From: Collinsella aerofaciens
GTDB taxonomy: Bacteria > Actinomycetota > Coriobacteriia > Coriobacteriales > Coriobacteriaceae
Direction: 5' to 3'
Length of the DNA: 46,727 nucleotides
Assembly (NCBI RefSeq): GCF_015557435.1
Contig: NZ_JADNOH010000001.1
Coordinates: 1 to 46,727 of the forward strand
Below, in pieces: positions 9,797 through 30,699 of the stretch (positions within the stretch are counted from its first letter, which is position 1; every line of letters starts with the position of its first letter). The notes beneath the pieces are model-generated. The model saw only the letters and a program-made list of their open reading frames with translations. It was not told the DNA's origin and made no database searches. A program made the translations under genes and the position numbers.

Positions 9797-10890
9797 TGAA
9801 AAAAATCATGCTCGTCTTCGGCACGCGCCCGGAGGCAATCAAGATGTGCCCGCTCGTCAACGAGCTGAAGGCGCGCAAGGAGGAGTTCGAGACCGTCGTG
9901 ACCGTGACGGGTCAGCACCGCGAGATGCTCGACCAGGTGCTGCGCGTCTTCGGTGTGGCTCCCGACCACGACCTGGCGATCATGAGGCCGGGCCAGACGC
10001 TATTCGACGTGACATGCGACGTGCTGCTCAAGCTCAAGGCGGTCCTCGAGGACGAGAAGCCCGACGTCGTCCTGGTCCACGGCGACACCACGACCAGCTT
10101 CGCCGCTGCGCTCGCGTGCTTCTACCTGCAGATCCCGGTGGGCCACGTAGAGGCGGGCCTGCGCACGCACGACATCTACAGCCCCTGGCCGGAGGAGTTC
10201 AACCGCCAGGCGGTCGACATCGTGAGCGAGTACTACTTCGCCCCCACGGAGGCCAGCAAGCAGAACCTGCTCGACGAGGGCAAGCCCGAGTCCAAGATCT
10301 GGGTCACCGGCAACACCGGCATCGACGCCCTGCGCACCACCGTACGCGAGGGATATTCCCACACCGAGCTCGCCTGGGCGGAGGGCTCCCGCCTCATCCT
10401 CATCACGGCGCACCGCCGCGAGAACCTGGGCGAGCCCATGCACCGCATGTTCCGCGCCATCCGCCGCGTGATGGAGGAGCATCCCGATACCAAGGCGATC
10501 TACCCCATCCACATGAACCCGCTCGTCCGCAAGGCAGCGCACGAGGAGCTCGACGGCTTCGACAGGCTCCACATCATCGACCCGCTCGAGGTGCTCGACT
10601 TCCACAACTTCATGGCGGCGAGCCATCTCATCCTCACTGACTCCGGCGGTATCCAGGAGGAGGCCCCTAGCCTGGGTAAGCCGGTGCTCGTCATGCGCGA
10701 CACCACCGAGCGCCCCGAGGGCGTGGCGGCCGGCACGCTGAAGCTCGTCGGCACCGAGGAGGACGTCATCTACCGCGAGTTCAGTCGCCTTCTCTCCGAT
10801 CAGGCCGAGTACGAGGCCATGAGCCACGCTTCGAACCCCTACGGTGACGGACATGCGAGCGAGCGCATCGCGGACGTGCTGGCGCAGTAG
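9796..10890 (+). CDS. wecB: UDP-N-acetylglucosamine 2-epimerase (non-hydrolysing)
   Basis: The enzyme interconverts UDP-GlcNAc and UDP-ManNAc in the cytoplasm, supplying ManNAc-type sugars for the polymer or for wall glycopolymers. The 364-residue protein carries the full set of family signatures: VFGTRPEAIKMCPL at the N terminus, VHGDTTTSFAAAL, VGHVEAGLRTHD, WPEEFNRQ, TAHRRENLG, and TDSGGIQEEAPSLGKP. Length is normal. It overlaps the flippase stop by one base. The codon usage is strikingly GC3-rich, in sharp contrast to the AT-rich genes before it, so it probably belongs to the conserved border of the locus rather than the exchanged core. Confidence 0.97.
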   Translation: MKKIMLVFGTRPEAIKMCPLVNELKARKEEFETVVTVTGQHREMLDQVLRVFGVAPDHDLAIMRPGQTLFDVTCDVLLKLKAVLEDEKPDVVLVHGDTTTSFAAALACFYLQIPVGHVEAGLRTHDIYSPWPEEFNRQAVDIVSEYYFAPTEASKQNLLDEGKPESKIWVTGNTGIDALRTTVREGYSHTELAWAEGSRLILITAHRRENLGEPMHRMFRAIRRVMEEHPDTKAIYPIHMNPLVRKAAHEELDGFDRLHIIDPLEVLDFHNFMAASHLILTDSGGIQEEAPSLGKPVLVMRDTTERPEGVAAGTLKLVGTEEDVIYREFSRLLSDQAEYEAMSHASNPYGDGHASERIADVLAQ

Positions 10891-10944
10891 TTTTCTCTGA
10901 GCTGTTTTATGAAGCTGCTCTTTTGGAACATAAACAAGAAAGAC

Positions 10945-10992
10945 AATGCCGACCTTGTCGTCACGCGCATGCGAGGGGATGAGGTCGGCATT
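10945..10992 (+). terminator. Hairpin after wecB, possible operon terminator
   Basis: AATGCCGACCT at 10945-10955 pairs perfectly with AGGTCGGCATT at 10982-10992. The 26-base loop itself contains the palindrome CGCATGCG. GCTGCTTTTGC follows, a weak T-run. It lies 54 bp after the wecB stop. The loop is long for an intrinsic terminator, so this is tentative. Confidence 0.4.
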
Positions 10993-11084
10993 GCTGCTTT
11001 TGCTGAGTTTTTGGAACTGACTTTTCAAATGAGCTGTTAAATAGAACTGGTTGAGGTGCCGTCAAAAATCTTTCGCAAATTGAT

Positions 11085-11569
11085 TTAACCGGCCTCGGCC
11101 CCGTCTTCTTTTAGCCCTCCGTCTTTCCCTTCAGTTCGTCCATCTCCTCCAGCTTCGACATATCCAGGTACTCCCTCTTGCTTCACTTTGTGCTTCAGCC
11201 TCGCCGTCACCAGCATGAGGACCGAGTTGCCGTCCGGGAAGATCCCGACGACCCTCGTCCTCCTCCTGATTTCGCGGTTGATGCGCTCGATCCCGTTGTT
11301 CGTCCTGATTTGGCGCCAGTGCTCAGACGGGAATTCCGTGTAGGCAAGCGTCTCGGCGAACCCGTCGCGTATCGTTCTCGCGGCCGTTCCGCAGAGCTTC
11401 GGCACGCTGAGATCGACTTCCCCGACGACCGTGATGAGTTTTCTCGCGTAGCGGCCGCCGTGGTAGCCATCCCGGCCCGCCGTCCTCTCGTAGCGCTCGG
11501 CCCCCCGACAAGCTCGGACGCCTCCTTGTCGAGCAGCGCGTTAAGCGCTTCCTCGACGGTCTTCCTCAT
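11085..11569 (-). pseudogene. Decayed IS256-family transposase with deleted catalytic core
   Basis: Reading leftward, the N-terminal piece (MRKTVEEALNALLDKEASELVGG) is intact to a run of G residues near 11501-11507. A one-base frame change there is needed to continue with AERYERTAGRDGYHGGRYARK and VDLSVPKLCGT. The text then jumps directly to TLAYTEFPSEHWRQIRTNN and REIRRRTRVVGIFPDG, the C-terminal signature of IS256-type transposases. About 200 residues between these parts, including the DDE core, are missing, so the gene cannot transpose itself. The sequence at about 11055-11080, just past the stop, resembles an IS256-type terminal repeat. It marks the left edge of the accessory island. Confidence 0.85.
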
Positions 11570-12145
11570 CAGGTTCTATATGTCATTGCGCAGCAACTCC
11601 CCGTCGACTGATAACGATATTCACAGACACGGCCCGCGCCCTTTCGTCAATGATTTGTTGTTTGGCCGCTGGAAATCATATGACGGGGTGCGGGCCGTGT
11701 TCCGCTATGCGGTTGTCAATTTATAAAAGATATTATGCGTCACCACCGTTTGACGAAAAACTAATAAACAATGGTTCTGCTGCACGTGCATGGGGGTAAT
11801 ATCTACTCAGACGTTCAGTGTCTGGAGCATGACGTTTTATGTCCGCACGTTGACCTTTCTATGAGGTTAACTGATTGCTGGGGGTTGTCATGCTGCTATA
11901 CGATGAGGCATTTCTACATGCTAATAATTTTTGCGAGATGACGCTTAGGTCATCTCGCTGATTGCTGCAGATTGATATCTATTTCCGTGCCGCGATGGCG
12001 TTTCATGTTCTGAGGTTAGGCTTCCTGCTTTGGCCTGCGCCATTCAGCATCTCACTATCTTCGTTTATCAAACTGAATGGGTTGGATAAAGGCCATTTGT
12101 CCGTCGCCCATTGGAGGTATATCTGCGAATTAGATTGGAGCAGAA
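11570..12145. other. Gene-free stretch with several hairpins
   Basis: I see no convincing gene here. ACACGGCCCGC at 11627-11637 pairs with GCGGGCCGTGT at 11690-11700. TTTCGTCAA at 11642-11650 pairs with TTGACGAAA at 11750-11758, partly interleaved with it. GCGAGATGAC at 11933-11942 pairs with GTCATCTCGC at 11949-11958 without a T-run on either strand. The promoter of the following cassette must lie in this stretch, but no strong -35/-10 pair is evident. Confidence 0.5.
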
Positions 12146-13192
12146 ATGCAAAGGAAGATGTACACCGCATTTGTATCCTCCGTATCTTCTCTTAAAGAGG
12201 AGCGCAGAGCAACGCTCGACGTTCTTCTTGATTTGGACGTATTTCCAGTGGCAACTGAGCATTTCGTTATCCAGTCAAAGGATGGGATAAATGATATCGA
12301 GCGTCTTATAGACGACTCTGATTTCTTTATCCTTCTTATGGGTAGCGAATACGGTCCTAAGACCAAGATTGGCGATTTTACCGGTAGCTGGACGGAATAT
12401 GAGCTTGTGTACGCACTGGAACATGCTCGAAGTAACAACACTAAGATCATTATTATTGAGCTGCCGGAACTAAAACGCATCTCGTCGCTGTCTTCTTCGG
12501 AAAAGGAGACTTTGAAGACTTCGGAAAAGAATCAGCTTGGTTTCTTGGATCGCCTTAATGGAAACACCATCTGCCAGGTTGCAGATATTAGTTCTCTGAA
12601 ATCGACCCTATCTACCTTTATTGAGGGCAATCGTCGCGCAAATTCGGCTTCAGGTTGGGTGCGAGCATTGTCCGCGCAGGGCTGTTTTGGTATTGAGTTT
12701 GGACGGACCTATCGTCAAGTTCATCTTTCGCCGAATGATGATACGTATATCCGAGTCGGGACCGCAGTTTTTAGCTGCAGTAAGCAATCGGCTACGATGG
12801 TTCATGTCGATGGAGTCAACCATAAGGCGAGTCTTGACGCTAACGGAAATATTATCCCTCGCAACGGTAGGAGCAAGACGGAATGGCAAGGCGAATACTC
12901 TTGCCAAGACGGAAGACTGTGCGGTGTCTATGAGGCATATAGACGGGACAACGGTGCGTTTGGCGGTAAATCTGTGACTGCGGGACATCGTCGTGGCGTC
13001 CATGAATTTGCAATTTCCGATGGCTCGGAGGCGTTTATGGATGGAACATTTCAAGATGCTGTTGGCAGAAACAATATAAACATAGCCTGCAAGTCTGGCG
13101 AGATTTACTTCTTTGAGAGCGAGGAGCTTATGAATCGTTTCCTCAAGCGCGAATGTCCTGAATTGTTTTGTACGTTGCCGGCGGAGGGGTAA
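12146..13192 (+). CDS. DUF4062 domain protein, putative sensor/TIR-like partner of a defence cassette
   Basis: Residues 1 to about 120 match the DUF4062 domain: KMYTAFVSSVSSLKEERRA, then IERLIDDSDFFILLMGSEYG, and SWTEYELVYALEH. This is a Rossmann-like domain found at the N terminus of many prokaryotic conflict proteins and reminiscent of TIR in its strand-helix order and its Trp-x2-Glu-like patch. Residues about 165-348 are an unrecognised, probably beta-rich domain (GTAVFSCSKQSATMVHVDG). The total is 348 residues. The ATG at 12146 has GGAG five bases upstream. It is the first gene of a closely spaced rightward series (phosphatase, TIR, small protein, membrane protein, caspase); only two bases separate it from the next start. 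Function is inferred from context only. Confidence 0.75.
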   Translation: MQRKMYTAFVSSVSSLKEERRATLDVLLDLDVFPVATEHFVIQSKDGINDIERLIDDSDFFILLMGSEYGPKTKIGDFTGSWTEYELVYALEHARSNNTKIIIIELPELKRISSLSSSEKETLKTSEKNQLGFLDRLNGNTICQVADISSLKSTLSTFIEGNRRANSASGWVRALSAQGCFGIEFGRTYRQVHLSPNDDTYIRVGTAVFSCSKQSATMVHVDGVNHKASLDANGNIIPRNGRSKTEWQGEYSCQDGRLCGVYEAYRRDNGAFGGKSVTAGHRRGVHEFAISDGSEAFMDGTFQDAVGRNNINIACKSGEIYFFESEELMNRFLKRECPELFCTLPAEG

Positions 13193-13194
13193 AA

Positions 13195-13950
13195 ATGGAC
13201 TATCAAGCGATTATTGATGTTGTTAAGTCTGTCAAACCGCTTTTCTTTGATAACGATCTGAGGTCTCAGTCCTCAATGAAGGGTGACGCTGACTTTGTTA
13301 CGCAAGTCGATCTAAAGATTAGCTCGTATGTTAAGTCTGCACTTGCTGAGTTAACGCCTGAAATAGGTTTTATGAGTGAGGAGGAAGACCCTGGCGAGGT
13401 GAAGCCCACTCGTTGGATTCTTGATCCTGTTGACGGTACTACAAATCTTGTTTTTGACTATCGTGCAAGCACTATTTCGCTAGCACTTGTCCGTGATGAA
13501 AAGCCTATATTTGGCATTGTTTACAATCCTTATAGCGATGAATTATTTACTGCTAAAAAGGGCTTAGGGGCTTTTTTGAATGGTAATAAAATTCAAACAT
13601 CCGACCGTGAGCTCGCTAATTGCCTTATCGAGTTTGGTGCTGGTTCAACGCATAAAGACGGCGCTCATGAGATTTTCGGTATCGCCGAAAAAGTATTTTG
13701 CGACTGCCTGGATTTGCGTCGCATGTGTTCTTCTGCGCTGGCAATCTGCTATATAGCCTGCGGAAGGACTAATGGCTATTTCGAAAAGAGGCTGAAGCCT
13801 TGGGATTATGCCGCTGCCGCACTCATCTTGGATGAGGCGGGAGGACTCTCTTCGGAGTGGAATGGACAGCCTCTTCAGTATAAATCTGCTTGCAGCTTTA
13901 TTTGCGGGTCGCAGACGGCGTTTGAATATTTAAAGGGAGTTGTTTCTTAA
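13195..13950 (+). CDS. Inositol-monophosphatase-family (IMPase/CysQ-like) phosphatase in a defence cassette
   Basis: A 251-residue member of the Mg-dependent, Li-sensitive phosphatase superfamily, which removes phosphate from inositol phosphates, fructose bisphosphate or 3'-phosphoadenosine nucleotides. All metal-site motifs are visible: ADFVTQVDLK (D36/D39 region), MSEEED (E62-E64), WILDPVDGTTN (D77, D80, G-T-T), and KPWDYAAAALILDEAGG (W203-D204). Length is normal and the active site looks complete. The ATG at 13195 follows GGAGGGG; it begins two bases after the DUF4062 stop. The location between DUF4062 and TIR genes is unusual. It could process a phosphorylated nucleotide signal, or be a housekeeping gene caught in the cassette. 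Confidence 0.85.
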   Translation: MDYQAIIDVVKSVKPLFFDNDLRSQSSMKGDADFVTQVDLKISSYVKSALAELTPEIGFMSEEEDPGEVKPTRWILDPVDGTTNLVFDYRASTISLALVRDEKPIFGIVYNPYSDELFTAKKGLGAFLNGNKIQTSDRELANCLIEFGAGSTHKDGAHEIFGIAEKVFCDCLDLRRMCSSALAICYIACGRTNGYFEKRLKPWDYAAAALILDEAGGLSSEWNGQPLQYKSACSFICGSQTAFEYLKGVVS

Positions 13951-14034
13951 CTCTGACTAATTGATTGACGACGATTGCCATGGCGATTACTCGTACAAAC
14001 TATTAGATCACGCTTTGAAAGAGGGGAGCGTTAT

Positions 14035-14442
14035 ATGAGTCTTCGTGATTATCACATTCTTATTAGCCATTCGTGGGATTACAGCGATGACTATAGGACG
14101 ATAAAGAGCTGGCTTGATTCAGCCGGCTACTTTAAGTGGTCGGACTATTCTGTTCCTATCGAGAATCCGATTGACGCTAAGAGCAAAGCTGAGCTTAAGC
14201 AGAGGATCGCGAATCGAATCTCTTGCTGTAGCTGCGTAATTGTTCTCTCTGGAATGTATGTCGCCTACAGCGAGTGGATCGACTTTGAGATCGAAACTGC
14301 TTTGAAGTATAACAAACCCATTATCGGGGTTAGGCCGCGGGGCCAGTTGCGTGTCCCTGATGAAGTGTCCTCTAATGCCGACATTATGGTTGGTTGGACG
14401 AGGGACGGTATTGTTAACGCTGTTCGCCAATATGCACTTTAG
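14035..14442 (+). CDS. TIR-like protein (ThsB type)
   Basis: A 135-residue single-domain protein. The opening RDYHILISHSWDYSDDYRTIKSWLD is typical of the ThsB/TIR-like family (once DUF1863). CVIVLSGMYVAYSEWIDFEIETALKYNKPIIGV follows, with the candidate catalytic Glu at about residue 85. Family TIR proteins of Thoeris turn NAD+ into cyclic ADP-ribose-type signals upon phage infection and activate a partner effector. The ATG at 14035 has GAGGGGAG upstream; a longer frame from 13975 lacks such a site. It lies 84 bp after the phosphatase and 7 bp before the small protein gene. The caspase-like gene 800 bp downstream is the probable effector. Confidence 0.85.
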   Translation: MSLRDYHILISHSWDYSDDYRTIKSWLDSAGYFKWSDYSVPIENPIDAKSKAELKQRIANRISCCSCVIVLSGMYVAYSEWIDFEIETALKYNKPIIGVRPRGQLRVPDEVSSNADIMVGWTRDGIVNAVRQYAL

Positions 14443-14449
14443 GAGAACT

Positions 14450-14638
14450 ATGTTTTTTAAGAAGCGAAAACCCGACTCGAGTCCTTCCGAGAAGTCATAC
14501 AACAAACAACTGCCGAAAGATCATCCCAATCCGCCTATTAGGGTTGTTCGTGGGAACACGGAGGAAATACCCGACTTCCCTTGTGCAGGATCTCCCTGCC
14601 CTGGATTCCCTTCGCCTCGTCCGAAAAAGAAGAATTAA
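14450..14638 (+). CDS. Small basic, proline-rich protein (62 aa)
   Basis: A 62-residue open frame whose ATG at 14450 is preceded by AGGAG eight bases after the TIR stop; its stop is directly followed by the next start. The product begins FFKKRKPDSS, is rich in Pro, Lys and Arg, ends SPRPKKKN and has two Cys in PCAGSPCPG. No membrane span or known family. The good ribosome-binding site and perfect packing in the operon argue that it is real. It might be a regulator or a proteolytic substrate of the caspase-like protein, but nothing in the sequence proves this. Confidence 0.65.
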   Translation: MFFKKRKPDSSPSEKSYNKQLPKDHPNPPIRVVRGNTEEIPDFPCAGSPCPGFPSPRPKKKN

Positions 14639-15250
14639 ATGGGTAAACGCAGCCGAAAGCAAATAGAGGGCGAGGGTGCAGTCCCGGGTTTCGATTCAGT
14701 TGACTATTCTGCCGAATATCTTTCATGGATGACCGAGCTGTCTTATCAGACAGAACTTAGTCGGCGTGATTCATATGAACATTTGTCTAACTGTTTGCTA
14801 AGCTGCGTCTCCATTATTTCCGTCGCTTTATTGACGGTGGCCCCGCTGTTATTTGAGAGATATAGCTACAACGACAACGGGGCTGCCGCGTCTGTTCTGC
14901 TGGCGAGTGGCTATGTTGTCGTCATGCTGCTGCTAGGTGCTTCATTTCTGCTGTCGTTGCTTAGTCAAGTCAGGCTCAAGATGAGCGTTCTCGCATCACC
15001 GATGGATTTGAATGATTTCGTTGCGGGCGAGATTAATCGTGGTGCGCCTTTTGCCTCTCCGATGGAAGTTGCCGAAGGTAAGGTAGGGGCGGTGCAGTCC
15101 CACTTTGAATCGCTTAATCGCAAGAACGAGTACATGAGAAAGTGCCTAATGGCATCGATGGTTCTGCTGATCGTGGCTGTTTCGGTATGCTTGTTCTTGG
15201 TTTGTCTTTTTTCGTTATTTGAGTTTTTATTGCCACCGTTTTGGAGTTGA
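14639..15250 (+). CDS. Membrane protein, SLATT/S-4TM-like candidate effector
   Basis: A 203-residue protein. A soluble N-terminal helix region (SAEYLSWMTELSYQTELSRRDSYEHLSN) leads into two spans (about residues 52-72 and 83-107). A soluble stretch of roughly 55 residues follows, then a last long hydrophobic segment (about 168-195, MASMVLLIVAVSVCLFLV) close to the C terminus. The layout resembles the SLATT and related few-TM families that accompany nucleotide-signal immune systems and are thought to breach the membrane. The sequence match is only by architecture. It starts at the base after the small-protein stop and ends 4 bases before the caspase gene. Confidence 0.55.
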   Translation: MGKRSRKQIEGEGAVPGFDSVDYSAEYLSWMTELSYQTELSRRDSYEHLSNCLLSCVSIISVALLTVAPLLFERYSYNDNGAAASVLLASGYVVVMLLLGASFLLSLLSQVRLKMSVLASPMDLNDFVAGEINRGAPFASPMEVAEGKVGAVQSHFESLNRKNEYMRKCLMASMVLLIVAVSVCLFLVCLFSLFEFLLPPFWS

Positions 15251-15254
15251 TGTA

Positions 15255-16235
15255 ATGCAAGGTCGCAAGGCACTTGTTGTCGGTATTGATGAGTATGCGT
15301 CGTCTCCGCTATATGGTTGTGTTGCCGATGCCAATGCGGTGGCCGAAGTATTAGGGAAAAATGGCGACGGCTCTCCTAATTTCTCCATTCATCTTGAGAG
15401 AAACGTTGAGTGTCCTTTTGAATTGAAGCGGATGATCGAAGACTGTTTCTCCGGGGATCCTGAGATTGCGCTGCTATATTTTGCTGGACATGGTGGAAGA
15501 TGCGACGTCACTAAAAATGGTTTCATCTTATCTGGCAAGGGCTATCCAGGGGGACAACTTTCCCTCGACGAGATCCTGGCGATAGCAAATAGCTCCAAAG
15601 CGAAAAATCGCGTAATTCTTCTCGATAGCTGTAATTCTGGGTGCATGGGGACTCCTGGAGTGCTTGGTGGGACATCCTGCTTGCTTGGTGAGGGTCTAAC
15701 AATTCTGAGCGCATGCTGTTCTAACGAATGTGCGGAGGAGCTTAACGGGCGCGGGACATTTACGTCGCTTCTGGTGGATGCGCTAAATGGCGGTGCAGCA
15801 GACGTGATGGGGCATGTTACTCCCGGTGGGGTCTATGCGTATATTGATAAGGCTCTCGGGCCATGGGATCAGCGGCCTGTGTTTAGGACTAATGTCAACT
15901 CGTTTATTTCGCTAAGAAAAGTCGTTTCGCAGGTTCCGGATAGTGTCTTGCGGCAGCTGCCGTCTTTGTTTGATGCGCCCGGTGCTCAACTGTCCTTGGA
16001 TCCGTCTTTTGAGCCCACCAACAATCCCGATTGGGAAGAGCATCGAATTGTTGAGCCCTATGCGACTAAGGATAATATGGAGAAGTTCAAGATCCTTCAG
16101 CAGCTGGAGGGTATTGGCCTTGTCCGTCCAGTGGGGGCCGAGCATATGTATTTTGCTGCCATGGAATCTAAGTCGTGCGAACTGACGGCTCTGGGCAAGC
16201 AGTATTGGCGCCTTGCCGATACGGGGAAGATTTAG
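15255..16235 (+). CDS. Caspase-like (C14) protease, candidate TIR-activated effector
   Basis: A 326-residue protein with a complete caspase-like domain (about 1-235). The first strand is KALVVGIDEYASSPLYGCVADA, the catalytic His is in LLYFAGHGG (H79), and the catalytic Cys is in ILLDSCNSG (C126). STLL-type core strands follow (LTILSACCSNECAEE). The last 90 residues (about 235-326) form a separate domain with a helix-rich, winged-helix-like end (EKFKILQQLEGIGLVRPVG); this is a plausible ligand-binding or substrate-binding module. In type IV Thoeris a TIR-made signal activates such a caspase, which then cleaves host proteins. The ATG at 15255 comes four bases after the membrane-protein stop. 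The dyad is intact, so it should be active. Confidence 0.87.
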   Translation: MQGRKALVVGIDEYASSPLYGCVADANAVAEVLGKNGDGSPNFSIHLERNVECPFELKRMIEDCFSGDPEIALLYFAGHGGRCDVTKNGFILSGKGYPGGQLSLDEILAIANSSKAKNRVILLDSCNSGCMGTPGVLGGTSCLLGEGLTILSACCSNECAEELNGRGTFTSLLVDALNGGAADVMGHVTPGGVYAYIDKALGPWDQRPVFRTNVNSFISLRKVVSQVPDSVLRQLPSLFDAPGAQLSLDPSFEPTNNPDWEEHRIVEPYATKDNMEKFKILQQLEGIGLVRPVGAEHMYFAAMESKSCELTALGKQYWRLADTGKI

Positions 16236-16655
16236 GCGATTGCGTCGAAAACGTTAATGTAGGGGCAACACCTTGATTTCCGTATAACGATGAACGGACT
16301 TCGTCTTGGAATCTGAAATCAGCACAACAACAGGTTCTAAGAATGAATGATGGCTATTACAGAATTCTTATTAGACCTGGCGTACGACACAGCCTCCTTG
16401 TTGCACGGGGTCGTGGGAAAGGCTTTAAGCGTCGTGGCGGACGCTGAGACCGAGCTGCTGTACGGTGACGGGGTGAACTTGGACGGGTGCTGTGAGAGGG
16501 CAATCGCCACCTTCGGTGACATGCTGTTGTTGCGCCTCCTGCAGTTTTGCTCGGGCAGCAAGCGACCGTTAAGAACATGTGAAGCATTACGCTGCGCGCG
16601 TTATTTGACGGTCACACATGATTGGGGAAGTGAAAGCGGTTTAAGGGAGAACGGA
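16236..16655. other. Spacer between the caspase gene and the tail-anchored protein gene
   Basis: An open frame runs from an ATG at 16347 into the next gene, adding 103 residues (LLHGVVGKALSVVADAETE and so on). That upstream start has no ribosome-binding site, its composition is more GC-rich than the rest of the frame, and I recognise no domain in it. I treat the stretch as leader DNA or a remnant of an unrelated gene. Confidence 0.4.
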
Positions 16656-17585
16656 ATGGCGCAGCGTGAGTACGATAGTTTTGCTATTGGAGTGTTTAAT
16701 TGCGGCAACGCAGCAGCACACGTTGATTTGTCAATTAACGTGTGGGCCGATATTGGGCGTTCTTCTGAAATTGATTTCGGTGTTCAAATCCCATGCAAGG
16801 ACGAAATTACGGGGCTCTTTATCTTTGTTCCTTTCAGAATAGATGAGAACGATGTTGTTGATCTTTCCCCCTCGTTTCGTGATAACGAGTTCAATCAAGT
16901 TTTGTTCAATCGGGATTGCAAAACCACGTGCTGCGGCAGTCAAACAATTGTTATTGATGACTGTGGAAATTCATTATTGGTCCTGCCTTTTGCGTGGGAT
17001 GAAGGGTTGACTGTTGATTATTTGGAGGGAGGGTCCTTACTTTCGCTTTCCTACGGCGTCTCGGCTCTTTCGCGTAAAACCTCATCTTTGTATTTCAGAA
17101 TGCGAATTCCTTTCACGTCACTTGGTGACCTGCTATCTGGCCCCGCTGATATGAGAGAGGTTATTACTGGACCTATTGTTCCGTTTCGTACCATGATTTC
17201 ACTTCCGGTCAATCAGGTTAGGGGTCTTCCGAATTCGGTCGTACGTAGGCTTGTTGATTCTAAAACCGATGTTGGAGAAACGCATATTGCGGTAATCGCT
17301 TCGCGACAATGGGAAGTGAATTCCGTTTTTACTCCGTATAGGGTTAGGCTTTTGGAAACTGTTGCTTGGGAACAATATCAGCCTAGAGTAAGGTGCAGTA
17401 ATGCTGTCCTGTTTCCAAAAGACCGCGACATGTTTGTATATCAGTGGCTTATATCTGACTGCAGCACTTCGTTACAACTAGAATTTTCACGTAAGCGTAT
17501 TACTGTCCTTACCTTGCTTTTTTATCTCGTCATCCTTTTTTTAATAAACTTGTTGAGCGAAGTTTTGATTCGTTTGGTTTTGTGA
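16656..17585 (+). CDS. Hypothetical protein with C-terminal membrane anchor
   Basis: A 309-residue protein that I do not recognise. The first 280 residues are soluble and strand-rich (SFAIGVFNCGNAAAHVDLSINVW and ITGLFIFVPFRID). The last 26 are a single hydrophobic span (VLTLLFYLVILFLINLL) with almost nothing after it, so it is probably tail-anchored with the bulk in the cytoplasm. The ATG at 16656 has AGGGAG six bases upstream, a strong reason to prefer it over 16347. A good terminator follows at 17729. It reads in the same direction as the caspase cassette but after a 420-bp gap, so membership in that system is possible, not shown. Confidence 0.6.
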   Translation: MAQREYDSFAIGVFNCGNAAAHVDLSINVWADIGRSSEIDFGVQIPCKDEITGLFIFVPFRIDENDVVDLSPSFRDNEFNQVLFNRDCKTTCCGSQTIVIDDCGNSLLVLPFAWDEGLTVDYLEGGSLLSLSYGVSALSRKTSSLYFRMRIPFTSLGDLLSGPADMREVITGPIVPFRTMISLPVNQVRGLPNSVVRRLVDSKTDVGETHIAVIASRQWEVNSVFTPYRVRLLETVAWEQYQPRVRCSNAVLFPKDRDMFVYQWLISDCSTSLQLEFSRKRITVLTLLFYLVILFLINLLSEVLIRLVL

Positions 17586-17728
17586 ACGCCAAAAATGTCG
17601 TTCGGGTATTTACTTAGTAGGGCACCATCTTCTGGTTTATAGGACAAAAAGTGTGTCTACTTTAGGGGCGTCGGCGCAGGTCGATTCCTAGCTTGTATTA
17701 CGAAATCGTACCGTCGCTATTGCGCGTG

Positions 17729-17763
17729 GGCACTAGGGTCAACTTGGCCCCCAGTGCCTTTTT
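17729..17763 (+). terminator. Rho-independent terminator
   Basis: GGCACTAGGG at 17729-17738 pairs with CCCCAGTGCC at 17749-17758 with one mismatch, followed by TTTTT. It ends rightward transcription of the tail-anchored gene and separates it from the convergent AAA+ gene, which ends 4 bases further on. Confidence 0.75.
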
Positions 17764-17766
17764 ATG

Positions 17767-18951
17767 CTAGGAGTTTACCTTGTTTCGTTCTGCGATGTAG
17801 TCCGCGAACCATTTGCGCGCGTTGTTCTTGAGGATACGGATGTTGTCTTCGTTTGTGGTGCTGATCTCCTGAAGCGCTCGTTCGGCGATAACGTTCTGAT
17901 CTTCAAGAGACTCGTCGACGCTTGAACGGTATTTTTCAGCGACCGATGCTATGTACCTGCTTACGAAGGTCTTTTTCTCCTTATCGCTCAGGGCCGCGAA
18001 ATCTACTTTGAGATTGAGCCTCGAGAGCAGTTCCGGTGGGAACTTGTCCTGCACCTCGGTTCTCGGTGTGTTCGAGGTGAATACTATGGTATAGCCGTTA
18101 AGGTCGTGTTCTTCGCCCTGGGAATCCGTGAACTTGCCGTTCTCGAGCAGGTCTAGGAAGAAGCTCCAGACTGCGGAATCTCCCTTTTCGAACTCGTCGA
18201 TGAGAATGACGCCCGACTTACTGCGTTCTATCTTCATTGTTAGCTCGCCCTCTTCGCTGCCCATGTAGCCACGCGGGCTGCCGATGAGTGAATTGAGCGA
18301 GTCCTTGCTGCTGTAGTTGCCGAAGTTGATCTTTGCTAACGATTCTCCCGGCGCGAGAAGGCTACTGAGGATCCTTGCAGTCTCGGTTTTGCCCACGCCG
18401 GAGGGGCCGATCAGGAACAGGGAGAGAATCGGCTGTTCTCCGATGCTGTTAAACAGCCTGAAAATTTCGACCTGTTTACGGAAATCATCTTTGAATTTAT
18501 CCTGCCCGATGAGGTTGTGTACGAACTGGTCGAGTAACTCTTTTGTCTCTGAGTCGTCTAGGTCTATCAGGCGTTTTGGTTTCTCTTCAGTTGGCATGGC
18601 TTGATCTTCGGTATCTCCTTCGATATCGCATTGTCGTACGGTGTCAAATATGGTGCGCATTTCGTATGCGTATCTGCCTGCTGTTGTTTCATCGGCGATG
18701 AACACCGTGTTTTCAGGCATTTGATAGAGAAGACCTTCAAATGTTGCGGCCATGCTTCCTTTGCCGACAGTGGGATCGAGTAGGGATAAAAGCGATGAAA
18801 CATCGAGTGCCATTTCACCCTCTCCAGCTTGCAGCGCAATTTGTGCCGTGCTAGAAAGAGATAACGCCGAGGTGTAGGCATAGCCTTCGCTTTCGAGCCA
18901 GTTTCTAAGACGGGCGAACTGGTCCTTTCTGTATGTGATTAAGTTCAGCAT
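17767..18951 (-). CDS. AAA+ ATPase with ClpA/ClpB-type (AAA_2) domain
   Basis: A 394-residue protein. The N-terminal 120 residues are of unknown type. The AAA+ domain (about 135-330) has Walker A LIGPSGVGKTET, Walker B GVILIDEFEKG, sensor-1 region TIVFTSNTP, and an arginine-finger region PPELLSRLN. This is the second-domain signature of Clp/Hsp100 unfoldases, but only a single ATPase module is present and no protease-docking loop is evident. It is the second gene of a leftward pair, starting 3 bases after the stop of the partner at 18955. In an island of this kind such a pair is a candidate defence or stress module; its function is not known. Confidence 0.85.
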   Translation of the reverse strand: MLNLITYRKDQFARLRNWLESEGYAYTSALSLSSTAQIALQAGEGEMALDVSSLLSLLDPTVGKGSMAATFEGLLYQMPENTVFIADETTAGRYAYEMRTIFDTVRQCDIEGDTEDQAMPTEEKPKRLIDLDDSETKELLDQFVHNLIGQDKFKDDFRKQVEIFRLFNSIGEQPILSLFLIGPSGVGKTETARILSSLLAPGESLAKINFGNYSSKDSLNSLIGSPRGYMGSEEGELTMKIERSKSGVILIDEFEKGDSAVWSFFLDLLENGKFTDSQGEEHDLNGYTIVFTSNTPRTEVQDKFPPELLSRLNLKVDFAALSDKEKKTFVSRYIASVAEKYRSSVDESLEDQNVIAERALQEISTTNEDNIRILKNNARKWFADYIAERNKVNS

Positions 18952-18954
18952 AGA

Positions 18955-19815
18955 TTATTCACTCTTTTTATTGACTGCCTGGATGACGGCGATGACATCG
19001 ATGTAGGTTGCTTCGGTCTCATCTTCTTCTATTGCCTGATTGTCAACTTGATCTTCCGTTCGTTCTTTGGATGAGCCATTAATGAAGCCGTCGTCCTCCG
19101 GTTCAGTCGTCTTTCCTTTTGTTTGATAGTATTCGTACGAGCTGCGAAGGTCCGATGGTTTAACTTTTCCCTTGCAGATTCCGATGATTCCGACTTTGCC
19201 GATGAGAAGGTCATCGACTGAGTAGCCGCTCTCGAAGAGATCCGCTCCATCAATAGGGATCTTCAAGATAATGTTGCTGCTTTCCTCGTCACCAATTCTC
19301 CCGATAAGCTTGAACGACGTGCCCGACTTGATGAAGGACTGAAATAGGTGCCCCACATCGAGGCCGCCAGCCTCCGGGATTGTAATCCCATCGAACGTTC
19401 CCGACATGACTGTTATGAGGGTACGCACTTCATCCTCGTTGAGTAGCGAGAGGCGTACGTTATCGATGTAAACAAGGTCGCCCTCCGATCTCTCTTCTTT
19501 GCCAAAATCGAGGCAGTTTCTTTTGATATCGGCTAGCATGCGGCTCACTGTGTTTATGTACTCGAACGTATCGATCATCTTTGTTCGCTTCTCATGTCCG
19601 AGGTTTCCGTTTGCCTGCGCGGTAAATTTTGGAAATATCGGAACCTTGGTTTCGCCTTTTGCGTGGATTTCAGCGTTTCCAGAGGTAGCCTTGTCTTTTT
19701 CATTCGAGCTATCTTTCCAAAGTGTGTTGTCTAGCAACATGCGCATCTCATAAACCTTGGAATGGTTCATGTAGTACACCGTGAAGAGGTCTGTGGCCTT
19801 GGTTTTATTCGACAT
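18955..19815 (-). CDS. Hypothetical protein, partner of the AAA+ ATPase
   Basis: A 286-residue soluble protein of no family I can name with confidence. It begins KATDLFTVYYMNHSKVYEMRMLLDN and contains LVYIDNVRLSLLNEDE. The arrangement is reminiscent of DUF6414-type proteins, but that is a weak impression. The last 60 residues are acidic and probably disordered. It is the first gene of the leftward pair. A TTGACA on the minus strand at 19855-19850 could be its -35, though no good -10 follows. The ribosome-binding site is a weak GGA. Confidence 0.5.
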   Translation of the reverse strand: MSNKTKATDLFTVYYMNHSKVYEMRMLLDNTLWKDSSNEKDKATSGNAEIHAKGETKVPIFPKFTAQANGNLGHEKRTKMIDTFEYINTVSRMLADIKRNCLDFGKEERSEGDLVYIDNVRLSLLNEDEVRTLITVMSGTFDGITIPEAGGLDVGHLFQSFIKSGTSFKLIGRIGDEESSNIILKIPIDGADLFESGYSVDDLLIGKVGIIGICKGKVKPSDLRSSYEYYQTKGKTTEPEDDGFINGSSKERTEDQVDNQAIEEDETEATYIDVIAVIQAVNKKSE

Positions 19816-20131
19816 AGCGTTCCAATCTATTTGATTCGTACATCTGTTCTGTCAATTATACCTAAGGGTACGGTGTCTTGAAGATGCGCGGCGACTTGAA
19901 GCTGGGAAAGACCCGGCCACCTTCGATTGCTGCATGTCCCGAAAGGGGTTAATCGGCGTGGTGCGTACTGCGAACTGTACATATCAATCGATTTCATTTT
20001 GGCTGCAATTAAATAGTGAATCATGTGACATAGTTTGATGGACTTAAATTGCCTTAGCCCCTCCGTCATGCGAGTTAAATGACTACGGTGGAGTAGAATT
20101 GTTTTAATTAGTGACTTTATGGCGGTGTGAT
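19816..20131. other. Divergent promoter region, no gene
   Basis: About 316 bp separate the leftward AAA+ pair from the rightward three-gene operon. I see no coding frame. Candidate elements are TTGACA (minus strand, 19855-19850) and a TAGAAT at 20094-20099 on the plus strand, neither with a fully convincing partner box. Confidence 0.4.
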
Positions 20132-21244
20132 ATGGATCTATCAGGAATACTCTCGCAAGCAGGTTTTGCTTTCCAGATGAAAGTGTTTCTGAAGCAGGTG
20201 ACAGAGTTAAACCCTAATACAGTTGCCAGCTATGAATATCTTGATGACATCTCAGCTTCTACCAGCCTTGACGAATTAAGCGGGCGGATTGGACTTTGTG
20301 AATCTCGGCTTATTCAGGTAAAAAACACCAATGTTGCTAAACGAGATGTTGTCCAAATTTATACGAACTGGATTCTTGCCGTTAGCAAGCACGAGTCGAT
20401 TTCTTCCCTCTGGCTCCTTTATTCGGATGATAAAAGCCTTTCCGCACATTTTGATGCCATTACCGCCAATCAATTCATTGAGAGTCTTGCTGAAAGGGCT
20501 AAGAAGTTCAGTAGGTCAAATGCCGCGAAGCTAAAGGCCTCTTTAAATGATGACGACATTGTCAGACTCTTTTCTTGTGTCAAAGAGAAGGCGAGTGCTT
20601 ACGCCATTAACGAGAATGCAATTAATGCTGAGATTAGGGATAATCTTTCAAGTATTTTTCACCTTACTTCGAACGTTGATTTATTTGATGAGCGAGTTGC
20701 TGAGTTGAGGAGAAGAATTCAGTTTAATGTGTCCGAAGCGATGCTAAAAGCAATTCCTTATAAAATCGACTATGAGTCATTTATGCAACTTTGCGAGCAG
20801 ATATGCGCAAAAATTTCTTCAAAACGATTTGAGCCAGATTACTCAGCATGGATGGCTGCTGCTGATGGCGATTTGCTTGACGTCAGGGAGTCGTCGCGTG
20901 AATATCGACAACTGCACTCCTGTCGGGAAGATGCTTTATTTATTACGCAACATCTGTATTTCTGTGAATACTATCGCTCTATAAATTATGAGAGACTTGC
21001 AAAGTGTCAGGCTGACACTGTTGCTAGTTTGGAAAACGCTACATTTAATAACTTTTGCGATTCGTGTAACCTGCTAAAGCTTGATGGCAAAGACGAACCA
21101 ATCCGACGGCTAATAGAAACTAAGCGCTGCCAAAATAGCTATGCGTATAACGATCATGAAAAATGGGGGTCATGCATTTGGCTTACGAGGGAAGAAACAC
21201 CTACTGAGAAAAGAATTTCATGGAAAGACGAAACCAATGATTAG
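20132..21244 (+). CDS. Putative nuclease effector of an ABC three-component-type system
   Basis: A 370-residue protein. The N terminus (GILSQAGFAFQMKVFLKQ, then YEYLDDIS and SRLIQVKNTNV) has the order of a DUF4297/Cap4-like PD-(D/E)xK nuclease. The Q-V-K at about residue 64-66 would be the catalytic core and the preceding Asp/Glu the metal ligands. The remainder is helical, with a Cys-rich region near the C terminus (NFCDSCNLLKLD). The ATG at 20132 is preferred over a GTG at 20111. The stop overlaps the next start by 8 bases (ATGATTAG), and the same kind of overlap joins the next two genes, so the three form one translationally coupled operon. The nuclease call is inference from motif spacing. 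Confidence 0.6.
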   Translation: MDLSGILSQAGFAFQMKVFLKQVTELNPNTVASYEYLDDISASTSLDELSGRIGLCESRLIQVKNTNVAKRDVVQIYTNWILAVSKHESISSLWLLYSDDKSLSAHFDAITANQFIESLAERAKKFSRSNAAKLKASLNDDDIVRLFSCVKEKASAYAINENAINAEIRDNLSSIFHLTSNVDLFDERVAELRRRIQFNVSEAMLKAIPYKIDYESFMQLCEQICAKISSKRFEPDYSAWMAAADGDLLDVRESSREYRQLHSCREDALFITQHLYFCEYYRSINYERLAKCQADTVASLENATFNNFCDSCNLLKLDGKDEPIRRLIETKRCQNSYAYNDHEKWGSCIWLTREETPTEKRISWKDETND

Positions 21245-21683
21245 CTATTCAAATGATCTTTTTCTCCGCCAAAGAGCAATAGTAGACAGCATTTATGTTG
21301 ACTATTTGCTTGCCATTCTTTCTTGCGCTGACAGCATGAGCGTTACTAAATTATTGGTTTTAACATTCTTGTCGAAATCAATCGAATCTCATGGAAACGA
21401 GCTGTTGAACGGTAGGTGCTCAAAAAATCTAATCGAGAGAGCTGCCTGCGCGGTTTCTGGTTCTTATAGCTCTTTCTTATATGAGCTTCAATATTCAGTT
21501 GAAGCCATCGAGATAGCCAATGTGGGCGGTCTCATTGCTATTGAAGATGCTTTTGTCCGCCTCACTAACGAGGGACGAACTCAGGGCTGCAGGGTGAATA
21601 ATTCGTTTATCTCAAAATTGATAAGAGAAGTCGCTTCTCTAGACGATAAATATGTTCTGTCGGAGATGATTCGTAATGTTTAG
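21237..21683 (+). CDS. Middle component of an ABC three-component-type system
   Basis: A 148-residue, mostly helical protein (VDYLLAILSCADSMSVTKLLVLTFLSK) without recognisable catalytic motif. Size, position between an effector-like gene and an SMC-like ATPase gene, and 8-base overlaps on both sides fit the 'middle component' of ABC-3C systems. These are small, fast-evolving helical proteins that link sensor ATPase and effector. The ATG at 21237 lies within the stop of the preceding gene. A longer frame from 21141 would overlap it by about 100 bases. Confidence 0.55.
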   Translation: MISYSNDLFLRQRAIVDSIYVDYLLAILSCADSMSVTKLLVLTFLSKSIESHGNELLNGRCSKNLIERAACAVSGSYSSFLYELQYSVEAIEIANVGGLIAIEDAFVRLTNEGRTQGCRVNNSFISKLIREVASLDDKYVLSEMIRNV

Positions 21684-23397
21684 CATTGAGTGCTTGGAAC
21701 TAATCTCTTGTTCTGGGGAGTCGTTTAGATACTCCTTTTCGAGCGGAGTTAATTACATTCAGGGTCCTAATAGCTCTGGAAAAACCGAATTTTACAATTT
21801 TCTTGACTATATGCTCGGGGCTGAGAAGAAGAAACTATCCGAGTCGCCTTGGTTCAAGGGGTCGTTACAGGCGGCCAAGATGCAGATCTCTTTTAATGGT
21901 CATGGTTTTTCCTTGTATCGCGATTTGGCTGGCGATGAGTTTGGACTAGTAATAGATGGAATACCTTATAAGGTATCTGATCTCGCGGAATATAGAAATT
22001 ACCTCAATACGCTGTTTCTGGAATCGGCGGATGACCCTACCAACCTCTCTGAATATGTCGGCCAAGAGCTGACATATAGGACGTTCACCTTATTTTCTTT
22101 TCTAAGCGAAGCTACGGTCGGCCGAATTAGTGGCTTTTTCAGCAAACTTCTTGAAACAAAATATCGAGTAAAACAGAGACCCTTATTTGATTATTTGTTT
22201 AGCATCAATCCGGATCGAATCGCGTTCCTTCAGCGCAAGATAACCGAACTTGGCAAGCGAGCTCGCGAGCTAGAATCTCAACGTGACTTTTTCAATCATT
22301 ATTTAGACGCAGTTAATCAAGAGCTTGCAAAGCTCGGAATCGTCGAGCGTTTCGATGGCAGCAATGCTGCTGTCATATCTGAATTGATTGAGACGGCTGC
22401 TATCTCCATTAATCTTGATTCTTCTTCGAGCTTGATGGCAAACGATGTTGTTGAGGCGGATCAGCTAAGAAACGATATCAAGGCGCAGAAGCAAATGATT
22501 CGCGAGCTTAGGGGGACAAAGGCTCAGGACGAGAAACGGTATCGCCTTCTGGATAGGTTGAACTCATTGATTGCTGACGATGATTCTAGGGCTGATCTTT
22601 TGGGCCAAACTTGCAATCTGCTTGGTGAAATTGAAGCGTCGATACCCAGAAAAGACCTTGATTTTCAAAAGGAATTACTTGCTCGCAAAGTGAGCAGATT
22701 AACTCAACTTGAAGCTAAGTTAACGGCTGCAAACGTGGTGTTTAATCCATTAGACTTTAATGAAAAAAGCAAGGCTGTTTTGGTGTCAAATGAGTATTTA
22801 TCCCAGTATTTGGCGCTCTACAAGCCCGATGATCTTGATGATATAAAAAAGGAGATTTCTCGTCTAAAAAAGGAGCTTCTAAACCTTAAGCATTCTGATG
22901 ATGATATTTCTATCTATTCAATTTCTGATACCGTAACCGATCTGTACCACTCGGCTTCTCAGGTGTCCTCCTTTGTTGAATCTGATTTTAAGCAACTTGA
23001 TTTTCATATCAAGTTTCAAAAGGAAGGAGTGGGGCTTCAACCCACCTTTTCCGAAGGGGACGATAGCGTTGACGTGTTTACTGGAAGTCGCGCTCGTCAT
23101 ACTTTGATGCAGATCTGCGGTTATCTCGCCTTCATGCGTTACTTACTTCAAAAGCGTAACGTTCCGTTTGTTCCCCTCCTTGCATTCGATCATGTCTCGT
23201 CGCCATTTGATGACGGAAGCTGTAGGGCGATAGGAGCGATAATCTCGAAGTTTTATTCGCTTGTGGATAAAAAAGAAGTACAGCTATTTTTGTTTGAGAC
23301 TGAAGAGCCGGATGCTTTGGGCGTTGATGTAGATAAGTATATTTCTCTTGTTTCAAACGGAAGAACTGGTTTCAACCCATTCTACAAAGCTGACTAA
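21676..23397 (+). CDS. SMC/Rad50-like ATPase of an ABC three-component-type system
   Basis: A 573-residue ABC-type ATPase. Walker A is at residues 30-38 (GPNSSGKTE). The central region of about 200 to 430 is a long coiled coil (ELGKRARELESQRDF, KKEISRLKKELLNLK). The C-terminal ATPase half contains SRARHTLMQICGYLAF in the signature region and a Walker B-like LLAFDHVSSPFDD. The residue after the Walker B Asp is His, where most family members have Glu, so hydrolysis may be slow or the Glu may come from elsewhere. It is the last gene of the operon and overlaps the middle component by 8 bases. Likely a DNA- or phage-structure sensor. Confidence 0.75.
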   Translation: MFSIECLELISCSGESFRYSFSSGVNYIQGPNSSGKTEFYNFLDYMLGAEKKKLSESPWFKGSLQAAKMQISFNGHGFSLYRDLAGDEFGLVIDGIPYKVSDLAEYRNYLNTLFLESADDPTNLSEYVGQELTYRTFTLFSFLSEATVGRISGFFSKLLETKYRVKQRPLFDYLFSINPDRIAFLQRKITELGKRARELESQRDFFNHYLDAVNQELAKLGIVERFDGSNAAVISELIETAAISINLDSSSSLMANDVVEADQLRNDIKAQKQMIRELRGTKAQDEKRYRLLDRLNSLIADDDSRADLLGQTCNLLGEIEASIPRKDLDFQKELLARKVSRLTQLEAKLTAANVVFNPLDFNEKSKAVLVSNEYLSQYLALYKPDDLDDIKKEISRLKKELLNLKHSDDDISIYSISDTVTDLYHSASQVSSFVESDFKQLDFHIKFQKEGVGLQPTFSEGDDSVDVFTGSRARHTLMQICGYLAFMRYLLQKRNVPFVPLLAFDHVSSPFDDGSCRAIGAIISKFYSLVDKKEVQLFLFETEEPDALGVDVDKYISLVSNGRTGFNPFYKAD

Positions 23398-27026: not shown

Positions 27027-27054
27027 TTGATTGATGCTATTTAAGGTCTATAAT
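27027..27054 (+). promoter_or_regulatory. Promoter of the first AAA/RloB pair
   Basis: TTGATT (27027-27032) and TATAAT (27049-27054) are 16 bp apart. Transcription would begin near 27061, leaving about 48 bases of leader before the ATG at 27109 and ruling out the in-frame ATG at 27031 as the start. Confidence 0.65.
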
Positions 27055-27108
27055 CAAATAAAAACTCTGAAATATCTTTTCAAAACAATGAAAGGAATTT
27101 TGAGGACG

Positions 27109-28326: not shown

Positions 28327-28327
28327 C

Positions 28328-29539: not shown

Positions 29540-29598
29540 ATTAGACTCTCCTATCTCTTGCCGTAATATAATTACGGCAAGAGATAGGAGAGTCTAAT
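29540..29598. promoter_or_regulatory. 59-bp perfect palindrome over promoter, ribosome-binding site and start codon
   Basis: Two 28-base arms (29540-29567 and 29571-29598) are exact reverse complements around ATA. The right arm includes the ribosome-binding site (ATAGGAG) and the first two bases of the ATG at 29597. TAGACT (29542-29547) and TAATAT (29564-29569), 16 bp apart, could be the -35 and -10. In that case the palindrome is an operator and the normal mRNA starts within the right arm. Any longer read-through transcript would fold into a 28-bp hairpin that hides the start. Regulation by either means is inference. Confidence 0.8.
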
Positions 29599-30697: not shown

Positions 30698-30699
30698 TC

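What the first reader, a model, noticed from the sequence alone, without database searches (positions are those of the whole stretch)
12146..16235. TIR/caspase cassette with DUF4062, phosphatase, small protein and membrane protein: possible new Thoeris-type variant
Seen: six genes in one direction with gaps of 0-84 bp, a ThsB-like TIR (SEWIDFEIETAL) and a caspase-like protease with H79 and C126 plus a 90-residue C-terminal domain. Known: in type IV Thoeris a TIR-made NAD-derived signal activates a caspase-like effector. Inferred: the DUF4062 protein would be a second sensor or signal enzyme, and the membrane protein a second effector or a protease target. The set of TIR, caspase, DUF4062, IMPase, small basic protein and 3-TM protein is one I have not met.
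Basis: partly seen in the sequence, partly recalled or inferred. Interest (0 to 1): 0.88.

Follow-up and report, generated by a model that had tools for sequence, protein, structure and literature searches.

The report
TIR-caspase defence with membrane-peptide add-on
A gut bacterium carries a known kind of two-gene anti-virus alarm (a TIR enzyme and a caspase-like protease) with an unusual add-on tucked between the two genes, a membrane protein and a tiny proline-rich protein, and similar pairs turn up in other bacteria and their viruses.

Summary
The six genes are real, in one direction, with the stated active-site residues. They are not one system. In Collinsella aerofaciens the TIR-to-caspase block (window 14021-16235) is 83% identical and the upstream transposase remnant is also shared, but DUF4062 and the IMPase are missing and similarity stops at the block's edges. 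The conserved unit is four genes: TIR, small protein, 3-TM protein, caspase. TIR plus caspase is the known type IV Thoeris arrangement: 72 of 80 homologous caspase loci hold a TIR. DUF4062 resembles KpSwz of the Swarozyc system and with its IMPase is a separate acquisition. What is new is the small/membrane pair. Membrane genes beside TIR-caspase often have a proline-rich mini-protein next to them (12 of 23, against 1 of 24 membrane genes elsewhere in the loci). A second membrane family, in prophages, has such peptides in 11 of 11 further loci, and most share a PPxRxVR[G/D]-type motif with the window's protein. Best guess: a membrane effector restrained by a disordered peptide that the caspase destroys. 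The pair is well supported; the mechanism is inference.

The parts
14035..14442 (+). TIR protein (ThsB_TIR family), predicted NAD-derived signal maker; catalytic Glu85
   Evidence: PF08937 2.6e-19; PADLOC ThsB; E85; block conserved in C. aerofaciens
14450..14638 (+). Small proline-rich basic protein (62 aa) with motif PPIRVVRGN
   Evidence: Codon-position pattern and shared ribosome-binding site; motif shared with poly-proline peptides of other loci
14639..15250 (+). 3-TM membrane protein (203 aa), no Pfam family above cut-off; besides C. aerofaciens, relatives at 35% (G063, same family) and 28% (G100, G097, same order) identity
   Evidence: helices 25-75, 81-119, 149-197 in a low-confidence model
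15255..16235 (+). Caspase-like protease (326 aa), H79/C126, type IV Thoeris-like effector
   Evidence: PF00656 1e-10; full-length homologues on plasmids and in genomes; residues
14021..16235 (+). Block shared at 83% identity with the C. aerofaciens contig (G002:C17, NZ_JADMOP010000025.1): the four-gene unit
   Evidence: blastn; record name
12146..13192 (+). DUF4062 (TIR-like NADase family) protein, Swarozyc-like N-terminal domain; separate acquisition
   Evidence: PF13271; PDB KpSwz 10wc E=1.6e-9 over residues 4-175; absent from sister locus
13195..13950 (+). Inositol-monophosphatase-family phosphatase, 2 bases after DUF4062; the only PF00459 gene found in this genome
   Evidence: PF00459
11055..11767 (.). 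Transposase-like remnant (my reading of the sequence), shared with the C. aerofaciens locus; marks the same site

Best explanation
The TIR and caspase form a type IV Thoeris-like anti-phage system: on infection the TIR turns NAD into a signal that switches on the caspase. Embedded between them is an accessory pair, a disordered proline-rich mini-protein and a 3-TM membrane protein. I propose that the mini-protein holds the membrane protein inactive through its PPxRxVRG motif, and that the activated caspase destroys the mini-protein, so that proteolysis is joined by membrane damage. DUF4062 and IMPase are a separate neighbour, a Swarozyc-like NADase with a linked phosphatase. Shown here: gene content, block boundaries, recurrence of the pair, the motif. 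Inferred: NAD signal, inhibition, cleavage, membrane damage.
For: TIR in 72 of 80 caspase loci. Block 14021-16235 conserved, similarity ending at its edges. 12 of 23 membrane genes near TIR/caspase have an adjacent proline-rich hydrophilic short ORF with a ribosome-binding site, against 1 of 24 membrane genes elsewhere in the loci, 0 of 45 near non-membrane genes and 2 of 188 far ones (exploratory rule). The 174-aa membrane family has such peptides in 11 of 11 further viral loci (looser rule) and in both plasmid relatives that I fetched, out of four hits. Strict motif in 11 of 15 of those peptides, 0.03 expected from shuffles; the window protein matches it, as do 0.0015 of its own shuffles. 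A looser look finds a hydrophilic small ORF directly upstream of the g5 relatives in G063 and G100. The caspase profile aligns with metacaspases through the LxGCxNDA segment, whose Asp I recall as the pocket residue for basic P1.
Against: The motif persists in 11 of 11 loci of the 174-aa family in which no TIR or caspase was detected (peptides of L202/L203 partly), so it cannot have evolved only as a caspase site. Most TIR-caspase loci have no such pair: in 0 of 10 further plasmid loci does a gene of 150-260 aa with at least two predicted TM segments lie beside the pair (L186 is cut at the record start). With the rule the three distant g5 relatives (L105, L109, L110) show no peptide, and the small ORFs of G063 and G100 lack the strict motif. 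The window's own pair is known from two genomes. Homology of its membrane protein to the 174-aa family is unproven (hhalign probability 17.6, E 0.0014). Under the loose form of the motif the window protein is unremarkable (0.19 of its shuffles match), and 7 of the 9 test peptides lack the strict motif. The characterised type IV proteins were not available for comparison.
Confidence: 0.45

Rival explanations
1. The small/membrane pair is an independent defence or toxin-antitoxin-like module that merely landed between TIR and caspase; no functional link.
For: The 174-aa family with its peptides occurs with no TIR or caspase detected in 11 viral loci: behind HTH genes weakly similar to CapH (L193, L194), beside an AbiJ-like gene (L198), near an S-type pyocin gene (L199), or beside phage portal genes (L200, L202). 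DUF6338 genes with proline-rich peptides also occur on plasmids with no TIR or caspase annotated within 3 kb (L141-L145).
Against: In Collinsella the pair lies inside the gene row, 7, 0 and 4 bases from its neighbours, and the four genes are conserved as one block. The association with TIR-caspase recurs with several membrane families.
Confidence: 0.3
2. All six genes are one new Thoeris type.
For: Same direction, short gaps; DUF4062 and TIR both belong to NAD-consuming families (PMC13174449).
Against: DUF4062 and IMPase absent from the sister locus and not detected in the other fetched caspase loci. The 84-base gap before the TIR coincides with the edge of the conserved block.
Confidence: 0.08
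3. The RxVR-G motif of the small protein is a dedicated caspase cleavage site (basic P1, Gly at P1').
For: PPIRVVRGN against PPTRNVRGD, PPTRNVRGN and PPTRAVRGN next to TIR-caspase in L149-L152 and L077. Caspase profile aligned with metacaspases including the LxGCxNDA Asp (its role is recalled).
Against: The same motif stands in loci without a detected caspase; in several of these the Gly is Asp, Glu or His.
Confidence: 0.12
4. The proline-rich peptides are themselves the killing agents (like proline-rich antimicrobial peptides that block ribosomes) and the membrane protein is immunity or transport.
For: Arg/Pro-rich short peptides, sometimes two or three in tandem. One locus lies near an S-type pyocin gene (L199). 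The P. stutzeri proteomics paper raises an antimicrobial role for its proline-rich small proteins (PMC10433244, one passage seen).
Against: No export signal seen by eye (not tested with a tool); the conserved part is one short motif.
Confidence: 0.07

Closest known systems
Type IV Thoeris (TIR-caspase; Rousset et al. 2025, Science, not held; known here through passages of PMC12847820)
   Same: Adjacent TIR and caspase-like protease with H/C dyad and catalytic Glu; the pairing recurs in 72 of 80 loci
   Different: Two extra genes between TIR and caspase in both Collinsella copies; the signal was not tested
Swarozyc (DUF4062 NADase; PMC13174449, preprint, abstract, part 1 of 6 and passages seen; PDB 10wc)
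   Same: Residues 4-175 of the DUF4062 protein match KpSwz; Glu86 aligns with a position that is Ala in the deposited chain, which fits the reported E97A construct (inference)
   Different: The match stops at residue 175 of 348; a phosphatase gene follows; not part of the Thoeris-like unit
DUF6338 membrane proteins with proline-rich, mostly GYQP-bearing peptides (Proteus, Photobacterium, Acinetobacter and others)
   Same: Membrane protein of about 200 aa plus proline-rich small proteins; DUF6338 lies near TIR-caspase in 7 of the 85 loci L015-L099 (peptides); proline-rich small proteins in a predicted operon with a DUF6338 gene were detected in P. stutzeri (one passage)
   Different: Membrane protein shows no convincing similarity to the window's (weak phmmer match L020-L065 only, E 0.003-0.009 among 17 sequences); different peptide motif
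PycTM / SLATT / 8xMP membrane effectors of Pycsar, DRT and related systems
   Same: Small helical membrane proteins in defence gene rows; weak hit of the L071 protein to PycTM, 1.4e-4
   Different: The window protein's best hit among these is RTasSLATT at 0.32; none in Pfam

Membership tests
Type IV Thoeris | TIR gene adjacent to a caspase-like protease gene | tested here: met
   Both in one gene row, with two genes between them; conserved in C. aerofaciens
Type IV Thoeris | Caspase His/Cys dyad and TIR catalytic Glu | tested here: met
   H79, C126, E85; H79 and C126 invariant in the 8 sequences of A2
Type IV Thoeris | Full-length homology to the characterised type IV caspase and TIR | not tested
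   Paper not held, so no reference sequence. Full-length homology to TIR-linked plasmid caspases shown
Type IV Thoeris | TIR makes N7-cADPR, which activates the caspase | not testable with these tools
   Needs biochemistry
Swarozyc (DUF4062 protein only) | DUF4062 domain with catalytic Glu | tested here: met
   PF13271 6.6e-12; Glu86 aligned to the position that is Ala in the deposited chain (that this is residue 97 is inference)
Swarozyc (DUF4062 protein only) | C-terminal auxiliary domain related to KpSwz | tested here: inconclusive
   phmmer match ends at residue 175; structure model useless (pLDDT 36)
Swarozyc (DUF4062 protein only) | Portal-activated NADase | not testable with these tools
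   Needs biochemistry
3-TM membrane protein plus PPxRxVR[G/D] peptide module (174-aa family) | Adjacent short proline-rich protein with the motif | tested here: met
   Strict motif in the window and C. aerofaciens proteins
3-TM membrane protein plus PPxRxVR[G/D] peptide module (174-aa family) | Membrane protein homologous to the 174-aa family | tested here: inconclusive
   hhalign E=0.0014, probability 17.6; phmmer not significant

The most novel reading that the evidence does not exclude
There is a widespread, largely unannotated class of two-part modules in bacteria and prophages: a small membrane protein kept in check by one or more disordered proline-rich mini-proteins carrying an RxVR[G/D]-type motif (or GYQP in another branch). 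TIR-caspase immunity has captured such modules several times, so that the signal-activated caspase degrades the mini-protein and releases a membrane-damaging effector, a bacterial analogue of protease-triggered membrane killing built from a separable inhibitor.
Probability: 0.3. Interest if true: 0.75.

Novelty: new variant of a known kind. Interest (0 to 1): 0.52.

Why it matters
If the caspase acts on the small protein, TIR-caspase immunity would have a specific target besides general proteolysis, and the link between caspases and membrane killing known from animal gasdermins (recalled) would have a bacterial counterpart with a separate inhibitor. Even without that, the recurring membrane-protein/proline-rich-peptide pair is easy to miss: its second gene encodes some 35-75 residues, and the window's small protein matched no family in Pfam, PADLOC, NCBIfam or PHROGs. 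The sister-locus comparison gives a clean four-gene construct to test.

Tried and rejected
Six-gene unit: rejected from the sister locus and the absence of DUF4062/IMPase in other fetched TIR-caspase loci. DUF4062-IMPase as a recurrent pair: no IMPase found near 29 other DUF4062 loci, two of them below the family's cut-off; but neither gene has a strong homologue in the other 64 genomes of the family (DUF4062 only a weak domain match in G058, E=1.5e-4; the IMPase none), so they may have arrived together. Relatives of the DUF4062 protein in plasmids, phages and viral contigs: none (the viral scan finds close relatives only). Membrane protein in plasmids and viral contigs: none. Structure of the DUF4062 protein: pLDDT 36, unusable. 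Structure of the membrane protein: pLDDT 58.5; Foldseek found nothing at E<=0.001. Promoter scan: 2 sites against 6.6 in shuffles; 8 terminator-like sites against 4.8, 7 of the 8 inside genes. RNA families: none in 10800-18000. GYQP peptides as members of the same motif family: rejected, no strict-motif match. Literature for polyproline or proline-rich defence pairs: no paper held all terms; DUF6338: one paper; DUF4062 with inositol monophosphatase: none.

Limits of the counts. The rule was set after I had read some of the peptides, so it is exploratory; stretches without a TIR/caspase label were skipped and their number was not printed. L077 was missed by it but has the peptide; L065 and L092, read by eye, also fell outside it. 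One search applied the same rule elsewhere: peptides for L141, L142, L144, L145, L188 and L189, none for L143 (an annotated peptide there is), L147, L181, L105, L109 and L110. One search used a looser rule (22-90 aa, at least 14% proline, no ribosome-binding site required). Many rows are near-duplicates: L193-L197 are one cluster and L202/L203 are near-identical, so 11 loci are about 6 independent cases; L020 and the window, and L149-L152, are related. L190-L192 and L151 repeat L149-L152 and were dropped before the count of 11. The motif was read from the peptides before it was counted, and the window protein had already been compared with L150.
Full report
What is there. The window region holds six same-strand genes as described: DUF4062 12146-13192, IMPase 13195-13950, TIR 14035-14442, small protein 14450-14638, membrane protein 14639-15250, caspase 15255-16235. 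The organism is a Collinsella: genome G002, listed as the same genus, holds its best match on contig C17 of 16,557 bases, and the Collinsella aerofaciens record NZ_JADMOP010000025.1, also 16,557 bases, gives the same 87% match.

Where the unit begins and ends. blastn of the window against that C. aerofaciens contig gives 83.5% identity over 14021-16235 and 83.9% over the upstream remnant 11055-11767, and nothing between them. In C. aerofaciens the interval is about 570 bases without similarity to the window beyond chance-level matches (best E 0.27), so without DUF4062 or IMPase. Downstream, similarity stops at the caspase's stop codon and a different gene follows. Both genomes thus keep the four genes TIR, small, membrane, caspase, while the adjoining sequence differs on both sides. 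This is one comparison of two genomes, so I cannot say whether DUF4062-IMPase was gained in one or lost in the other.

TIR plus caspase. In 72 of these 80 a TIR related to one of my TIR queries lies in the fetched locus, nearly always directly beside the caspase. L023 (TIR 2.3 kb away) and L076 (TIR beside a second caspase) are included; eight loci (L041, L062, L078, L084, L088, L090, L093, L098) gave none. On plasmids 56 records match, 43 over at least 80% of the caspase. Of the 15 of these that I opened, 14 have an annotated TIR next to the caspase; the other (Listeria) has an unlabelled gene that I took as a TIR from its sequence. In other Collinsella-family genomes the pair occurs without the small and membrane genes: G014 and G045 (TIR of another type plus caspase) and G046 (split caspase plus TIR). 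This is the arrangement called type IV Thoeris; the primary paper is not held, and the statement that N7-cADPR activates the caspase comes from passages of PMC12847820.

DUF4062 and IMPase. The DUF4062 protein matches PDB entry 10wc (KpSwz) at 1.6e-9 over residues 4-175. The preprint PMC13174449 (abstract, part 1 of 6 and passages seen) reports DUF4062 as a TIR-like NADase defence family. Neither DUF4062 nor IMPase was detected in any of the 80 fetched caspase loci. Of the 30 PF13271 loci fetched, the 29 besides the window show no IMPase within about 1.5 kb. In the 65 genomes of the family only the window's genome has a strong match to either gene; G058 has a weak DUF4062-domain match (E=1.5e-4) and no other genome has the IMPase. 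The IMPase is the only PF00459 gene found in the genome. I read them as a separate pair: a Swarozyc-like NADase with a phosphatase that might supply NAD from NADP or clean up a nucleotide (inference).

The small/membrane pair. The small gene behaves as coding (changes by codon position 11/11/28, an in-frame indel of five codons, the same TAGGAG site in both Collinsella copies), and its longest identical stretch is HPNPPIRVVRGNTE. Membrane-protein relatives are rare: 3 of 65 family genomes including the window's and 3 of 396 phylum genomes including the window's. The G063 relative lies in what looks to me like a BREX-type locus (my reading, untested) behind a SIR2-like gene. Under the rule none of the three distant relatives (L105, L109, L110) has a proline-rich neighbour. 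A looser look shows a hydrophilic small ORF directly upstream of the G063 relative, with a ribosome-binding site, and a 45-codon hydrophilic ORF overlapping the start of the G100 relative by four bases. Neither matches the strict motif, and I saw none of this kind for G097.

Recurrence. I gave 104 TIR-caspase stretches (L015-L099, L148-L165 and the window) to a script that counts short (30-85 aa), proline-rich (at least 12%), hydrophilic ORFs with a ribosome-binding site next to genes of 150-260 aa. They lie beside 12 of 23 membrane genes near TIR/caspase, 1 of 24 membrane genes farther away, 0 of 45 non-membrane genes near and 2 of 188 far. The rule was fixed after seeing some cases and rows are not all independent. 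The 12 fall into five membrane families (DUF6338, the 174-aa family, L071, L073, Collinsella), between which phmmer sees no convincing similarity. As an out-of-sample look I searched viral contigs with the 174-aa family: all 11 new loci, none with a detected TIR or caspase, have one to three such peptides just downstream under a looser rule. The two plasmid relatives that I fetched, of four hits, have them under the original rule. In ten further TIR-caspase plasmid loci no gene of that size with two TM segments lies beside the pair, so the accessory is a minority feature.

The motif. Of 15 peptides of the 174-aa family, 11 match PP..R.[VILM][RKF][GDEH] against 0.03 expected from shuffles, and 15 match a loose form against 1.5 expected. 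Of nine other peptides tested, the window's and C. aerofaciens' match the strict form (0.0015 and 0.00075 of their own shuffles do); the seven others (L015, L026, L063, L065, L071, L073, L091) do not. The loose form is uninformative for the window protein (0.19 of shuffles). Of 18,630 short ORFs in all loci, 33 match motif and proline content; 30 of these are the genes discussed here, several being one gene in overlapping loci, and 3 are unrelated. In ungapped comparison of the window protein with nine peptides, the score with L150 was reached by 0 of 2000 shuffles, with L077 by 5, with L149 by 14; the six others were not significant.

How it probably works. Shown: genes, boundaries, pairings, motif. 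From known families: TIR makes an NAD-derived signal, the caspase is the effector. Inferred: the mini-protein binds and restrains the membrane protein, and the caspase, whose profile aligns with metacaspases through the LxGCxNDA segment (that this Asp selects basic residues is recalled), removes it. Against this, the motif is kept where no caspase is detected, so its first role is likelier to be with the membrane protein; a purely independent module remains a strong rival.

Verdict. The core is a new member of a known system; the embedded pair makes it a variant, and the pair itself is the part worth following.

Noticed in passing
17767-19815: Two minus-strand genes matching PADLOC candidate system PDC-M37 (A and B), with lower-scoring hits to DolA and DolB.
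   Followed up: no
20111-23397: Three genes, the third matching LmuB (Lamassu; 4.6e-30); the first two have no family above cut-off in Pfam or PADLOC.
   Followed up: no
23780-25405: Reverse transcriptase fused to a trypsin-like protease; PADLOC RT-Protease_XI, 2.5e-100.
   Followed up: no
27031-31518: AbiL-like pair (AAA_21 plus RloB) and a PDC-M12 A/B pair; the window from about 12 kb to 31 kb looks like a defence island.
   Followed up: no
16347-17585: 412-aa protein with a C-terminal hydrophobic segment right after the caspase; no hit above cut-off in Pfam and none in PADLOC, NCBIfam or PHROGs; outside the conserved block.
   Followed up: partly
L193-L203, L077, L149-L152, L188, L189: 174-aa-type membrane proteins, most with a Y/FEKIYF-like start, each followed by 1-3 poly-proline mini-proteins; some in viral contigs beside portal or regulator genes, some with TIR-caspase.
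   Followed up: yes
L141-L145, L015, L026, L063, L065, L091, L092: DUF6338 membrane proteins paired with small, mostly GYQP-bearing proline-rich proteins, with or without TIR-caspase; such small proteins were detected in P. stutzeri according to one passage of PMC10433244.
   Followed up: partly
L017, L074, L094, L096, L158, L178, L180, L184, L185, L187: Several TIR-caspase pairs are followed by a roughly 95-aa protein; in Paenarthrobacter (L017) it has a weak RyR-domain match (0.0022), with relatives in L074, L094, L096 and L158. In L178, L180, L184, L185 and L187 I saw only a gene of that size. Possible signal-binding or signal-degrading partner.
   Followed up: no
G000:C80:27997-28260 (L008, L013): Remnant of a second caspase C-terminus of this type elsewhere in the same genome.
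   Followed up: no
L012 (G046): Caspase split into two reading frames next to an intact ThsB-type TIR: a decayed copy or a sequencing error.
   Followed up: no
L145 (Acinetobacter baumannii plasmid pA52-2): A DUF6338/peptide pair lies next to an annotated DUF4062 gene on the other strand.
   Followed up: no
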